From an uncultured Lachnospiraceae bacterium (GTDB taxonomy: Bacteria; Bacillota; Clostridia; Lachnospirales; Lachnospiraceae): DNA of 64,000 nt. A program made the translations under genes and the position numbers. The stretch covers positions 62,001-126,000 of the forward strand of contig CATKXR010000003.1 in assembly GCA_949840805.1 (NCBI GenBank), read 5' to 3'. Below are positions 3,681-7,014 of the stretch, one piece after another. The notes under the pieces were generated by a model. That model saw only the letters and a list, made by a program, of their open reading frames with translations. It did not search any database and was not told the DNA's origin. Each line of letters opens with the position of its first letter. Position 1 is the first letter of the stretch.

Positions 3681-4175
3681 TCATTCTTCATACATCCATT
3701 CTGTGACGCTGCGGATTTTTTCATAGGAATATCCCTGCCGCCCCAGAGAAGCGGTCAGTCTGCGATATTGTCCTGGCTCCACCGGCTCTTCCGGCTTATA
3801 TCCCTTTTTCCTGAGCCATTCCACAATCTGAGCTTCCTCATCCACAGGCTGTTCTCTCAGCCCCGCATCAATCAGTTCTCTGTCCACTCCCTTTTGTTCC
3901 AGCTCCGCCCGTATCCTGCGGATGCTTTTGCGGGAGGAATATGTCCTGATATATCTCAGGACATATTCTCTGTCATCCACATAATGATATTCTTCTAAAA
4001 ATGCCAGCGTCTCTTCAATCTCTTCCCGCTGATACTTCCTTTCTTTTAACTTCCGCCTCATCTCCTGCGCGGTTTTATCAGACCTTTCCAGCAAAGAAAG
4101 CGCACAGTCCCTGACTGGCTTTGGCTTCTTTATCCGTCCTGCCGCCTTTTTATCCTCTGCCGTCCGGTCATCCAT
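3681..4175 (-). CDS. recX: regulatory protein RecX
   Basis: RecX binds RecA filaments and limits RecA recombinase and co-protease activity. The 164-aa protein shows the three-helix tandem repeats of the family: [19 protein letters not shown], then [19 protein letters not shown] with the typical Y-hydrophobic-DD-x-x-Y/F signature, then further repeats. The gene starts inside the last codons of recA (8-bp overlap), so translational coupling is likely. Expression should follow the LexA-controlled recA promoter. The length is usual for short RecX proteins. Confidence 0.92.
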
Positions 4176-5229
4176 TTTCTTCCTCTGTCTCCTTTGCCGG
4201 CTTATCCGGAGTCTCCGGTGTTGCCACCACGTCTCCCTGCAGCCCGTATTGTTCCCTGACCTTGCGCTCTATCTCCACGCACACCGACGGATTCTCTCTT
4301 AGATAGTTTTTCGTATTCTCCCTGCCCTGCCCGATCTTTGTCCCGCCATAAGCATACCAGGCGCCGCTCTTATCTACGATATTCTCCTTTACGGCCAGAT
4401 CCAGAATATCCGCTTCCCGGGAAATCCCCTGCCCGAACATAATATCAAACTCCGCCTCTCTAAATGGGGGCGCAATCTTGTTCTTTACGACTTTTACACA
4501 GACATGGTTGCCGATAACCTCTCCTCCCTGCTTCAGCGCCTCCTTCCTGCGTACATCCAAACGGACAGAGGCGTAAAACTTCAGCGCCCGGCCGCCTGTG
4601 GTCGTCTCCGGGTTTCCGAACATCACACCCACTTTTTCCCGAAGCTGGTTAATAAAGATCACGGAACAATTGGACTTGCTGATCACGCCTGTCAGTTTCC
4701 TTAATGCCTGGGACATCAGGCGTGCCTGCAGGCCTACATGGGAATCTCCCATCTCCCCATCGATCTCTGCCTTGGGTACAAGGGCTGCAACCGAGTCTAC
4801 GATCACGATATCAACCGCTCCGGAACGAACCATGGTTTCGGTAATCTCCAGAGCCTGTTCGCCGTTATCCGGCTGTGAAATATAAAGATTATCAATATCC
4901 ACGCCAATGTTCTTAGCATATACCGGATCCAGGGCATGCTCCGCGTCAATAAACCCGGCTATGCCGCCTCGCTTTTGAACTTCTGCCACCATATGAAGCG
5001 CCACCGTAGTCTTACCGCTGGATTCCGGCCCATAGATTTCAATCACCCTTCCCTTTGGCACGCCGCCGAGCCCCAGTGCGATATCCAGGCTCAGAGAACC
5101 GGTAGGCACCGTCTCCACATTCATGTTCTTGCCGGAGTCTCCTAACTTCATAATGGAACCCTTGCCATAAGATTTTTCTATCTGCGTAATGGCCGCATCC
5201 AATGCTTTCAGCTTATCATCCTTATTCAT
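4168..5229 (-). CDS. recA: recombinase RecA
   Basis: RecA is the DNA strand-exchange ATPase and SOS co-protease. The 353-aa product has Walker A (GPESSGKTT), Walker B ([13 protein letters not shown]), the L1/L2 DNA-binding loop region ([19 protein letters not shown]) and a variable acidic tail. The start ATG at 5229 follows GGAGGG directly and gives the family N-terminus [14 protein letters not shown]. An upstream extension of the same frame to 5298 runs through the promoter and LexA box and is rejected. recX overlaps the 3' end. Confidence 0.98.
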
Positions 5230-5243
5230 ATTTACCCTCCACA

Positions 5244-5298: not shown

Positions 5299-5497
5299 CT
5301 CATTTTCGGAAAGAAAGCTTTGTTTTTACTCTCTTTTACAACCGCATCACTCTCCTGTCTGCTTTTGGACAACCCGCATTCCTCTTAATAAGTCCCGGTA
5401 TAATGAAACTCTGGCGATATGCCGGACAAAAGGCGGAACAGCCTTTGAACCATGGTTTAACTATAACACAGATAACGGTCTGCTGTCAAATCTAAAA
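5299..5497. other. gene-free stretch before the structured element
   Basis: No coding frame with a ribosome site is seen. It contains a short hairpin (AAAGGC 5429-5434 with GCCTTT 5441-5446). A TATAAT at 5399-5404 on the plus strand has no convincing -35 box and could at best be a weak promoter for the structured element that follows. Confidence 0.4.
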
Positions 5498-5958
5498 ATA
5501 TACTTTTTCGTGCGGAGCTTGACGCTGTTTACAGTGATTCCGAAAGGTCCGCCTGGTTTGTTACCCGTACCCCGGAAAACGCGCTCTCGCTCCGTGAAGA
5601 ACGTAGCGGACGCTAAATTCGCCGGGAAAACCATCCCGGCTCATTAAGCGCCGACGTTCTTCGAGGGTTTCCCGGGGTACGGGTAACAGACCAGGCTACA
5701 TTATCGGCTGTTTTATGGGAGAAACGCCTTCCATTAAGCTGCCGGTAACGTAGCAGGAGAAGAGGGACAGAACGTTTGAAGGTCCTCTTTTCACGTCGGC
5801 ACTTAGGCTGTGTCTTTTACAGCCTTAGTACCGCTACGTGAAAAACGGAGTGAGAACGTGTCTGAAAACGTTCTGTCCCTCTTCTCCTGCGGACCCTTCG
5901 GAATAATCTTTAACTTAACAATATTGGCCTATGGATAGTGTTGCACGAAAAGGTATAC
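5498..5958. ncRNA. large structured element, candidate noncoding RNA (or palindromic repeat)
   Basis: There are no genes in this stretch, but five long-range helices nest perfectly. P0 is 5498-5513 with 5943-5958 (14 of 16). P1 is 5537-5550 with 5891-5904 (13 of 14). P2 is 5551-5580 with 5667-5696 (28 Watson-Crick, one G-U, one mismatch). P3 is 5705-5718 with 5731-5744 (12 of 14 counting one G-U). P4 is 5753-5777 with 5866-5890 (25 of 25). P1 abuts P2 and P4 with no spacer. The P2/P3 and P3/P4 linkers are both 8 nt, so P1-P4 form a closed four-way junction. Inside P2 are a 9-bp helix (5596-5604/5654-5662) and a 7-bp hairpin (5621-5627/5634-5640). The P4 arm has inner helices 5790-5796/5836-5842 and 5806-5811/5820-5825. 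It matches no RNA family I recognise; the strand is unknown. It could instead be a fold-back mobile repeat. Confidence 0.6.
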
Positions 5959-5997
5959 CCTTCCAGTCATGCATTAAAGAGCGCCCGGAAGGGTATA
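5954..5997. other. 11-bp inverted repeat before the glycosyltransferase promoter
   Basis: TATACCCTTCC (5954-5964) pairs perfectly with GGAAGGGTATA (5987-5997). No U-tract follows on either strand. Bases 5954-5958 are also part of helix P0 of the preceding element, so the two pairings compete. It could be an operator or an alternative RNA hairpin. Confidence 0.45.
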
Positions 5998-6003
5998 AAC
6001 AAT

Positions 6004-6033
6004 TTGACAAACACCAGAACTTGGTATTAAAAT
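6004..6033 (+). promoter_or_regulatory. promoter of the glycosyltransferase gene
   Basis: TTGACA (6004-6009), 18-bp spacer, TAAAAT (6028-6033). It lies about 43 bp before the ATG at 6076. Confidence 0.6.
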
Positions 6034-6075
6034 AAAACTGCTGAAAACAGTAATTATTCATGGAGGTTGTTTTTA

Positions 6076-7014
6076 ATGGACAAGATAGCAGTCCTTATTC
6101 CCTGTTATAATGAAGAACAAACAATAGGAAAAGTGATCCGGGATTGGAAAGAATATCTTCCTGACGCTGTTATCTATGTTTATGATAACAACTCAACCGA
6201 CAAAACCGCCGAACTGGCGCTGCAGGCCGGCGCCATTGTCCGCCATGAGAGCCGGCAGGGAAAAGGAAATGTCATACGGCGGATGTTTCGTGAGATTGAT
6301 TCCCATTGCTATATCATGGTAGACGGCGACGACACGTATTCGGCAAAACACGGCCCGCAGATGGCACAGATGGTTATCGAACAGCAGGCAGACATGGTTA
6401 TCGGAGACCGTCTGTCTTCGACCTATTTCCAGGCAAACAAAAGGCCCTTCCACAATACGGGGAATTCACTGGTACGCAGCGCCATCAACAAACTGTTCAA
6501 GACGGATATACAGGATATCATGACGGGATACCGTGCCTTAAGTTACCTCTTTGCAAAAAGCTTTCCGGTACTTTCCAAAGGTTTTGAAATCGAGACGGAA
6601 ATGACCATTCACGCCGTTGACAAAAATATGAACGTCCAGAACCTGGTCATCGATTATCAGGACAGGCCGGAGGGAAGCCAGTCCAAACTGAACACCTACT
6701 CTGACGGGATAAAAGTAATCGGCACCATTTTCCGACTGTTTAAGAATTATCGTCCCATGATGTTTTTCGGGACGTTGGCCGGTATTCTCCTGGCAGTGTC
6801 CATGTCCATGTTCATACCGATTTTACTGAAATTTTTTAAAACAGGATTGGTTCCCAACTTTCCCACCCTGATTGTCAGTGGATTTATCGCTATGTCCGCC
6901 ATTACTTCCTGGTTTACAGGCATGCTTTTAGAAACAATCGTGGAAAAGGACAGACAGGCTTTTGAATTTCGCCTTCATGTACTTGAAAGGATGAAAAACC
7001 AGGCGGAAACATAA
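6076..7014 (+). CDS. GT2 family glycosyltransferase, DPM1/polyprenyl-phosphate type
   Basis: The 312-aa protein likely transfers a sugar from a nucleotide donor to a lipid phosphate (undecaprenyl-phosphate) at the inner membrane face. It opens with the GT-A fold signature ALIPCYNEEQTIGKVI-like segment and has a DGDDTY (DxD metal/nucleotide) motif near residue 90. Two hydrophobic helices near residues 225-250 and 260-285 should anchor it in the membrane. The start ATG 6076 follows GGAGG by 9 bases; a TTG nine bases upstream sits directly against the ribosome site and is rejected. It is a single gene between two hairpins. The substrate cannot be told from the sequence. Confidence 0.85.
   Translation: MDKIAVLIPCYNEEQTIGKVIRDWKEYLPDAVIYVYDNNSTDKTAELALQAGAIVRHESRQGKGNVIRRMFREIDSHCYIMVDGDDTYSAKHGPQMAQMVIEQQADMVIGDRLSSTYFQANKRPFHNTGNSLVRSAINKLFKTDIQDIMTGYRALSYLFAKSFPVLSKGFEIETEMTIHAVDKNMNVQNLVIDYQDRPEGSQSKLNTYSDGIKVIGTIFRLFKNYRPMMFFGTLAGILLAVSMSMFIPILLKFFKTGLVPNFPTLIVSGFIAMSAITSWFTGMLLETIVEKDRQAFEFRLHVLERMKNQAET

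What the first reader, a model, noticed from the sequence alone, without database searches (positions are those of the whole stretch)
5498..5958. 461-bp nested four-way-junction element, candidate undescribed structured RNA
Seen directly: five long helices nest without conflict. P2 and P4 are 30-position and 25-bp arms; the 25-bp arm is perfect, the 30-position arm has one mismatch and one G-U. P3 is a 14-position hairpin. P1 and P0 close the whole. P1 touches P2 and P4 with no spacer, and both linkers beside P3 are 8 nt. No reading frame explains it. The G-U pairs and internal loops argue for RNA rather than a simple DNA palindrome. It does not carry the recognisable signatures of tmRNA, RNase P RNA, 6S or SRP RNA. 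Inference: a large regulatory RNA, or a fold-back mobile repeat.
Basis: partly seen in the sequence, partly recalled or inferred. Interest (0 to 1): 0.75.

Follow-up and report, generated by a model that had tools for sequence, protein, structure and literature searches.

The report
Lachnospiraceae mobile giant-hairpin DNA repeat
The 461-base folded element is one of dozens of copies in this bacterium of a short, gene-free, apparently jumping DNA repeat built from long hairpins; it looks like a structured RNA, but the way its pairing is kept points to DNA, and the same hairpin unit recurs in many relatives.

Summary
The fold is real (MFE -259 kcal/mol, z -18.9, 0 of 100 shuffles as stable) and matches no Rfam family. 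It is not a single-copy RNA gene. The host genome holds about 49 copies or fragments, and five congeners examined lack it at the same recA-upstream place. P2 and P4 are two inverted copies of one unit: long variable arms, a mini-hairpin, a conserved asymmetric tip. P0, P1 and P3 come mainly from the inverted flanks and are less well kept (68-85% Watson-Crick cells against 97-98% in the arms). A covariance model finds the unit in 87 of 200 sampled genomes of the family, and only in that family in a class sample (7 of 291). In one subfamily arms differ 29% per site yet stay 97.6% Watson-Crick, against 2% in the tip. Across 135 units arm G-T and A-C oppositions are equal (124 vs 135), as for a DNA palindrome. 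In the host genome alone G-U exceeds A-C (67 vs 40). Best reading: non-autonomous palindromic mobile DNA, MITE/REPIN-like, mobiliser unknown; Y1 transposases show no association.

The parts
5499..5957 (.). Complete element: two inverted hairpin units between inverted termini TATACYTTNTCGTGC...GCACGANAAGGTATA; no gene
   Evidence: Longest copies align over query 2-459 to 2-461; termini; fold
5499..5513 (+). Left terminal inverted repeat (P0, 5' side)
   Evidence: 15 nt, 93% complementary to 5943-5957; recurs at copy ends
5943..5957 (-). Right terminal inverted repeat (P0, 3' side)
5537..5550 (+). P1 left side, ATTCCGAAAGGTCC: outer flank of unit 1 (holds the GTCC foot motif)
   Evidence: fold; 19 single-sided against 2 compensated events across copies
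5891..5904 (-). P1 right side: the same outer flank, of unit 2, in inverted orientation
5551..5696 (+). Hairpin unit 1 (P2): arms 5551-5580/5667-5696, mini-hairpin, conserved tip CGTAGCGG...CCGACG
   Evidence: model R1 hit 5570-5679 +, 64.1 bits, E 2.3e-14
5697..5752 (.). P3 region: apposed 3' flanks of the two units (CTAC...GTAG), an imperfect hairpin; 14% from consensus among copies
   Evidence: fold; divergence and uncompensated changes
5753..5890 (-). Hairpin unit 2 (P4), inverted relative to unit 1: arms 5753-5777/5866-5890, tip on the - strand
   Evidence: model R1 hit 5771-5870 -, 88.6 bits, E 9.8e-21
5952..5998 (.). Abutting short hairpin TATACCCTTCC...GGAAGGGTATA sharing the TATAC junction; looks like a shortened relative of the 72-bp unit beside other copies (inference)
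   Evidence: sequence, fold; 72-bp unit

Best explanation
A non-autonomous mobile DNA repeat (MITE/REPIN-like) made of two inverted copies of a hairpin unit found in my genome samples only in the window's family, which I take as Lachnospiraceae from record titles. Each unit has three parts: long arms whose sequence is free but whose complementarity is kept; a mini-hairpin (CG[C/T]TYTC[G/A]CT) on one side only; and a conserved bulged tip (CGYAGCGGTRC(N)TAAG...CTAAGTRCCGRCG) with a small variable hairpin. SHOWN: multicopy dispersal, presence/absence at corresponding places in relatives, modular units across the family, and DNA-type rather than RNA-type pairing in the arms family-wide. INFERRED: the tip and mini-hairpin are what an enzyme acting in trans recognises, most likely on extruded or single-stranded DNA; the arms are needed only as a stem; they are kept perfect because one arm is re-copied from the other (template switching or fold-back synthesis, during replication or during the jump). 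The mobilising enzyme is not identified.
For: About 49 copies or fragments in the host genome, 14 of them covering at least 450 of 461 positions, and 81 units by covariance model. Inverted termini recur. No unit in the recA-upstream loci of the 5 congeners I scanned, of 23 that matched, and none between the corresponding genes for copy L010 in two congeners (alignment). Four copies on different contigs carry the same roughly 155-bp second palindrome in the P4 loop, so the composite itself spread. P2-type and P4-type hairpins occur apart in relatives. The unit is in 87 of 200 family genomes and in 14 of 24 genomes of the genus, with 81, 64, 51 and 41 units in four and 1-10 in ten. Arms: 124 G-T vs 135 A-C over 135 distinct units, G-U share 0.479, 95% bootstrap 0.405-0.548. 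Column pair 39-95 has CG 34, TA 24, no other. One subfamily, 18 distinct arm pairs: 404 of 414 base pairs Watson-Crick; over copy pairs 913 compensated double vs 108 single differences; tip 0.020 and arm 0.292 per site.
Against: In the host genome's own copies single-sided events favour G-U over A-C on the + strand (67 vs 40, P = 0.012; P4 arm and tip alone 14 vs 3), which an RNA would also give; unpaired sites lean the same way more weakly (27 vs 21). In the tip alignment all 28 model pairs give G-U 74 vs A-C 39; without position 45-91, where the search pattern fixed T, 43 vs 39. No target-site duplication could be established for the element itself. No autonomous partner or consistently linked gene was found in what I inspected. 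Y1 transposases show no association (47 of 87 vs 69 of 113, P = 0.39; 22 of 42 genomes with at least 10 units have no match). Own-genome arms show single as well as compensated events (P2 arm 12 vs 8, P4 arm 9 vs 3), so instant re-copying is clear only in the subfamily.
Confidence: 0.78

Rival explanations
1. A structured non-coding RNA of about 400 nt, encoded by a gene that has been duplicated many times.
For: Very stable fold on the + strand; conserved asymmetric tip, bulge and terminal-loop sequence; T-G wobble at tip position 45-91 in 31 of 58 units (the search pattern fixed T there); G-U over A-C 67 vs 40 in the host genome's copies.
Against: Family-wide arms show no G-U excess (124 vs 135); freely varying pairs 39-95 and 16-21 show no G-U; P0, P1 and P3 are less well kept than the arms; units sit in both orientations relative to neighbouring genes (45 same, 34 opposite in tandem contexts); no Rfam match. 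In the host genome the skew in P4 (14 vs 3) is on the strand opposite to its unit, while P2's is slight (13 vs 10).
Confidence: 0.1
2. A REPIN in the strict sense: mobilised by a RAYT/TnpA-REP Y1 transposase that reads a GTAG foot and a hairpin in single-stranded DNA.
For: Two units in inverted orientation with CTAC/GTAG feet facing inwards (sequence); GTCCG/CTAC feet recur in several lineages, judged by eye; Y1 genes are present in 116 of 200 family genomes.
Against: No association with Y1 presence (P = 0.39) and 22 of 42 genomes with at least 10 units have no Y1 match. The 12 Y1 loci fetched (L102-L113, of the longer list) hold no recognisable tip, and the readable ORFs look to me like ordinary IS200-type genes. 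Units are far longer than the 20-40 bp of REPs (PMC3733652, abstract).
Confidence: 0.12
3. A MITE of a DDE-type insertion sequence that recognises only the outer TIR (TATACCTTNTCGTGC); the hairpin units are passengers.
For: 15-nt TIR at both ends; smaller 72-bp units share the left terminus and abut copies; the secondary palindrome in the P4 loop has its own TIRs and a repeated CTTAG at its edges.
Against: The outer ends differ between lineages while the unit tip is conserved (by eye), so the tip rather than the TIR is the constant part; a search for the TIR showed no autonomous element among the places listed and followed up; no consistent target duplication seen.
Confidence: 0.3
4. A host-functional DNA site (for example for nucleoid, terminator or replication functions) spread by rare duplication.
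For: Often within 150 bp of a gene's 3' end (77 of 115 such sides, against 52 of 113 5' sides); inside the panB-panC-panD cluster in L171 (genes named by eye); a corresponding unit upstream of a fabF-like gene in three loci.
Against: Patchy presence (0 to 81 units within one genus) and absence at the places examined in relatives are unlike an essential site; divergent (17) is as common as convergent (18) context.
Confidence: 0.07

Closest known systems
REPIN / REP-BIME elements with RAYT (TnpA-REP)
   Same: Non-autonomous, intergenic, many copies, imperfect hairpins, inverted doublets, GTAG-like foot next to the hairpin base
   Different: The two units here are 146 and 138 bp rather than 20-40 bp; arms vary freely in sequence; no association with Y1 genes; in my samples limited to one family of Clostridia
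MITEs and other small mobile sequences (ERIC/RU-type repeats)
   Same: Short, gene-free, terminal inverted repeats, dispersed
   Different: The part conserved between lineages is an internal asymmetric tip, not the TIR; arms co-vary; no autonomous relative found in what was inspected
Foldback / quasipalindromic DNA kept perfect by template switching (PMC8794818, abstract and opening text)
   Same: Arms change on both sides at once and stay paired
   Different: Here it is a dispersed element family with a sequence-conserved tip
Integron attC sites (single-stranded folded recombination sites)
   Same: Variable stem, conserved structural and extrahelical features on one strand (recalled)
   Different: Most units examined lie singly or in pairs among host genes (short tandem runs in G157); attC boxes and integron integrase not tested
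Large ornate bacterial ncRNAs (OLE, GOLLD, ROOL, HEARO; recalled)
   Same: Size and elaborate fold
   Different: No Rfam match; multicopy with inverted ends; DNA-type covariation in the arms

Membership tests
Structured non-coding RNA | Match to a described RNA family | tested here: not met
   0 Rfam matches in the window at gathering scores; five miRNA-family matches far below gathering scores at E up to 5
Structured non-coding RNA | Covariation with wobble (G-U) tolerated over A-C on the RNA strand | tested here: inconclusive
   Not met in arms of 135 distinct units (124 vs 135) nor in columns 39-95; tip pairs 74 vs 39, or 43 vs 39 without position 45-91; 67 vs 40 in the host genome's copies
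Structured non-coding RNA | A discrete transcript | not testable with these tools
   No expression data
REPIN/RAYT | Inverted doublet of palindromes with GTAG-type foot | tested here: met
   Two inverted units, model R1 hits + and -; CTAC...GTAG facing inwards in the sequence. In other genomes single units are common
REPIN/RAYT | 20-40 bp palindromes | tested here: not met
   Hairpin units here are 146 and 138 bp; size of REPs from PMC3733652 abstract
REPIN/RAYT | Associated Y1 (RAYT) transposase | tested here: not met
   47 of 87 unit-bearing vs 69 of 113 unit-free genomes have a Y1 match, P = 0.39; no tip next to the 12 Y1 loci fetched. Incomplete genomes soften this
MITE | Terminal inverted repeats, no gene, many dispersed copies | tested here: met
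MITE | Target-site duplication | tested here: inconclusive
   No consistent duplication seen at flanks; corresponding unoccupied places too diverged to read
MITE | Autonomous element with the same ends | tested here: inconclusive
   Pattern search gave 267 places at up to 3 mismatches, fewer than the reversed-pattern control (334), about 100 of them listed; the one inverted pair inspected at transposon-like distance encloses host-like genes
Integron attC | R/L boxes, cassette array, IntI | not tested
   Considered by recall only

The most novel reading that the evidence does not exclude
A self-templating hairpin mobile element. Only the tip is inherited as sequence; the arms are regenerated from each other at each round (fold-back copying of one arm), so stem sequence turns over fast while perfect pairing is inherited. 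It would be a bacterial mobile element class that propagates a shape plus a small recognition tip, and would yield strong RNA-like covariation without any RNA.
Probability: 0.25. Interest if true: 0.8.

Novelty: new variant of a known kind. Interest (0 to 1): 0.5.

Why it matters
It would be a widespread repeat family, undescribed in the searches named below, in a major group of gut and rumen bacteria (unit found in 87 of 199 genera sampled; up to 81 units in a genome). It also breaks assemblies: more than ten contig ends of the host genome lie in copies. It gives a clean case in which strong folding energy and abundant compensatory change need not mean RNA; the G-T versus A-C count separates DNA palindromes from RNA helices and could be applied to other candidate structured RNAs. 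If the arms are re-copied during mobility, the family makes that mechanism testable in cultured hosts such as Eisenbergiella tayi or Lachnospiraceae bacterium GAM79 (names from record titles).

Tried and rejected
Rejected: known RNA family; phage or plasmid origin, since distant BLASTN of 5450-6050 found nothing in 50,697 phage and 72,556 plasmid records, though the tip pattern occurs in 5 IMG/VR contigs; an autonomous transposon at C42, whose enclosed genes look like an agr-type cluster judged by eye; a linked helper gene, since recurrent neighbours among 854 ORFs of the fetched loci looked like common host families at mixed distances (by eye); units bracketing a mobile gene in L171 and L191, which enclose pan genes and pilin-like genes instead (by eye); Y1 transposase as mobiliser.

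Led nowhere: reading a target duplication from flanks; the pattern was mis-specified (0 matches, not used); (recA in viral contigs) gave only recA relatives and was not used. The inner-hairpin count (A-C 36, G-U 6) counted conserved loop ends as pairs; a recount on the four outer pairs of 58 hairpins of 15-19 nt gave WC 193, transversion 38, G-U 1, A-C 0. The tRNA control (16 tRNAs, G-U 23, A-C 0) is weak, because the drawing program may not bracket mismatches. The named-genome and viral scans used a P4-type tip pattern, so P2-type units outside the host are few by design (3) and the family statistics rest on P4-type units. Rows dropped: of 147 P4 units found in the named-genome and viral loci 138 had enough flank and 124 an arm score of 14 or more; one search dropped arm scores under 13 and repeats of the same arm; one search dropped identical arm pairs, leaving 18. 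One search used only pairs that are Watson-Crick in the consensus.

Not found in print: library searches (tip strings); I read their listings and saw no paper describing this repeat. Searches were on template switching and single-stranded DNA motifs. Read further: abstract and part 1 of the Results of PMC3733652, abstracts of PMC3116915 and PMC8266576, abstract and opening text of PMC8794818, passages of PMC2864571. Most subscription papers are not held.

Full report
OBSERVATION. The stretch 5498-5958 folds at -259 kcal/mol against a shuffle mean of -140.1 (s.d. 6.29), z -18.9, 0 of 100 shuffles as stable. So the anatomy is real and far beyond chance. It lies upstream of recA (4168-5235, - strand) and of a family-2 glycosyltransferase (6076-7014, + strand). 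No Rfam family matches.

MULTICOPY AND MOBILE. A search of the host's own genome (5.0 Mb, 152 contigs) gave matches at about 40 places (128 match rows, many of them the hairpins matching their own reverse complement), with the full unit spanning about query 2-459. Mapping them and a few more found through the termini gave 49 copies or fragments, the window's included, 14 of which cover at least 450 of 461 positions; a copy split over two contigs may be counted twice. The ends are inverted repeats, TATACCTTNTCGTGC...GCACGANAAGGTATA. The recA-upstream region of five congeners (L279-L283, of 23 that matched) was aligned with the window: BLAST matches reach the insertion point or nearly so in two (L279, L280) and stop earlier in the other three, where the alignment still shows a conserved block close to it; none of the five loci holds a unit. 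The L010 copy's corresponding intergenic region in two congeners also lacks one (alignment). Four copies on different contigs (one of them at a contig end) carry the same roughly 155-bp second palindrome in the P4 loop, edged by repeated CTTAG; the composite therefore spread after that insertion. Tandem copies occur (L020).

MODULAR UNIT. In relatives the P2 and P4 hairpins occur apart. Aligning 58 diverse P4-type units defines the unit: arm, GRC, mini-hairpin CG[C/T]TYTC[G/A]CT on the 5' side only, a variable stem, CGYAGCGGTRC(N)TAAG, a small variable hairpin, CTAAGTRCCGRCG, the second half of the stem, and the second arm. Arms align over 34 bp on average and up to 81 bp. Several lineages have GTCCG before and CTAC after the hairpin (by eye). 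The covariance model R1 recognises both hairpins of the window, 5570-5679 + and 5771-5870 -. So the window element is two units, inverted. P3 is the meeting of their 3' flanks and P1/P0 the meeting of their 5' flanks.

DISTRIBUTION. R1 at E up to 1e-5 matches 87 of 200 genomes of the family, drawn from 199 genera, and 14 of 24 genomes of the genus, with counts 81, 64, 51, 41 and otherwise 1-10. In a sample of 291 genomes of the class at E up to 1e-6 with stricter filters, 7 match, all in the same family. A few titles name other groups (Mogibacterium, Muribaculaceae, Selenomonadaceae, Gastranaerophilales MAGs), which may be binning errors (not tested). That the window's family is Lachnospiraceae is inferred from these titles. 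The patchiness and local bursts fit a mobile element.

RNA OR DNA. If a helix is selected as RNA, single-sided changes to G-U survive better than those to A-C on the transcribed strand; if it is a DNA palindrome the two are equal. Aligning arms by Watson-Crick matches only, 135 distinct units outside the host genome gave 4109 WC, 124 G-T, 135 A-C, 281 transversion mismatches; the G-U share is 0.479 (95% bootstrap 0.405-0.548). An earlier, wider count over 129 units gave 135 vs 164. Column pair 39-95 of the tip is CG 34, TA 24 and nothing else; 16-21 is CG 46, TA 11, CA 1. In one subfamily (18 distinct arm pairs, from two genome handles and matching named records) 404 of 414 arm base pairs are WC (1 G-T, 5 A-C, 4 transversion), and over all copy pairs 913 arm columns differ by a WC-to-WC double change against 108 single changes and 60 other doubles; the tip differs at 0.020 per site and the arms at 0.292. 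These are pairwise counts over related copies, not independent events.

RESULTS AGAINST. In the host genome's own copies, distinct single-sided events number 67 G-U and 40 A-C (binomial P = 0.012). P4 arm and tip contribute 14 vs 3, P2 arm and tip 13 vs 10, P0+P1+P3 33 vs 23. Unpaired sites lean the same way (27 vs 21), so part of this may be mutation bias, but a transcribed strand in this host cannot be excluded. In the tip alignment the 28 model pairs hold 1406 WC, 74 G-U, 39 A-C and 104 transversion cells; 31 of the G-U are at position 45-91, where the search pattern fixed T and allowed A or G opposite, and without it the count is 43 vs 39. Compensated events in the host genome are 23 in all: P2 arm 8, P4 arm 3, P0 3, P3 3, P1 2, P2 tip 2, P4 tip 1, other 1, against 12, 9, 18, 45, 19, 18, 11 and 9 single-sided ones. 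Watson-Crick cells are 97% and 98% in the P2 and P4 arms, 85% in P0, 80% in P1 and 68% in P3 (from the counts). Divergence from consensus is 5.1% (P2 arm), 2.9% (P4 arm), 2.4% and 2.1% (tips), 14.0% (P3) and 12.1% (flanks), so the units are conserved and the linking helices much less.

MECHANISM. Most likely a trans-acting enzyme recognises the tip and mini-hairpin, which are the parts fixed in sequence across lineages and are asymmetric, while arms serve as a stem. Perfect arms with fast-changing sequence imply that one arm is copied from the other. Template switching has been proposed to create and keep such hairpins (PMC8794818, abstract and opening text). Whether this happens in ordinary replication or in the transposition step is open. 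Y1 transposases, the natural guess from REPINs (PMC3116915 and PMC8266576, abstracts), do not fit: present in 47 of 87 unit-bearing and 69 of 113 unit-free genomes (P = 0.39), without a match in 22 of 42 genomes with at least 10 units, and with no tip beside the 12 Y1 loci fetched. Absence of a gene in incomplete genomes is soft evidence. Recurrent neighbouring ORFs looked like ordinary host genes.

CONTEXT. Of 114 units (named-genome and viral loci) with an ORF of at least 110 aa on both sides, 79 lie between tandem genes, 18 between convergent and 17 between divergent ones; 77 of 115 gene 3' sides and 52 of 113 gene 5' sides are within 150 bp.

VERDICT. Observation confirmed; the RNA reading is not supported, though not excluded for this host; the fold-back mobile repeat reading is supported. 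It is a new variant of a known kind (small palindromic mobile DNA), notable for breadth within its family and for RNA-like covariation of apparent DNA origin.

Noticed in passing
L029, L030, L032, L034 (P4 loop, between query positions 326 and 331): The same roughly 155-bp second palindromic element with TIRs GAACTGTCTCGAAATCACTTACCAT and a giant near-perfect hairpin, edged by repeated CTTAG; it also carries an AGTCCGC motif near its base and may be a second family of similar design.
   Followed up: partly
L012, L013, L066-L068, L073-L076, L078 and others: A 72-bp unit TATACCTTNTCGTGCGGAGCYTGACGGAGCACG...GGAAGGGTATA abuts many copies and shares the TATAC junction.
   Followed up: partly
window 5420-5460: A block conserved upstream of recA in the host and the five congeners aligned (CTGGCGATATGCCGGAYAAAAGGCGGAACNGCCTTTGAA), two small hairpins by eye, no Rfam match; next to a CGAACAAATGTTCT site that I recall as the Gram-positive LexA box.
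   Followed up: no
L171 3932-5118: Units sit both between panB and panC and between panC and panD (genes named by eye).
   Followed up: no
   Followed up: no
L240, L241, L242 (genome G157): Head-to-tail tandem units with 164-, 187- and 137-bp spacing.
   Followed up: no
L231-L235 (IMG/VR contigs): The tip pattern occurs in five putative viral contigs; whether these are real phage or host flank was not checked.
   Followed up: no
L160, L167, L205: A corresponding unit upstream of a fabF-like gene in three loci, one with a shortened left arm.
   Followed up: partly
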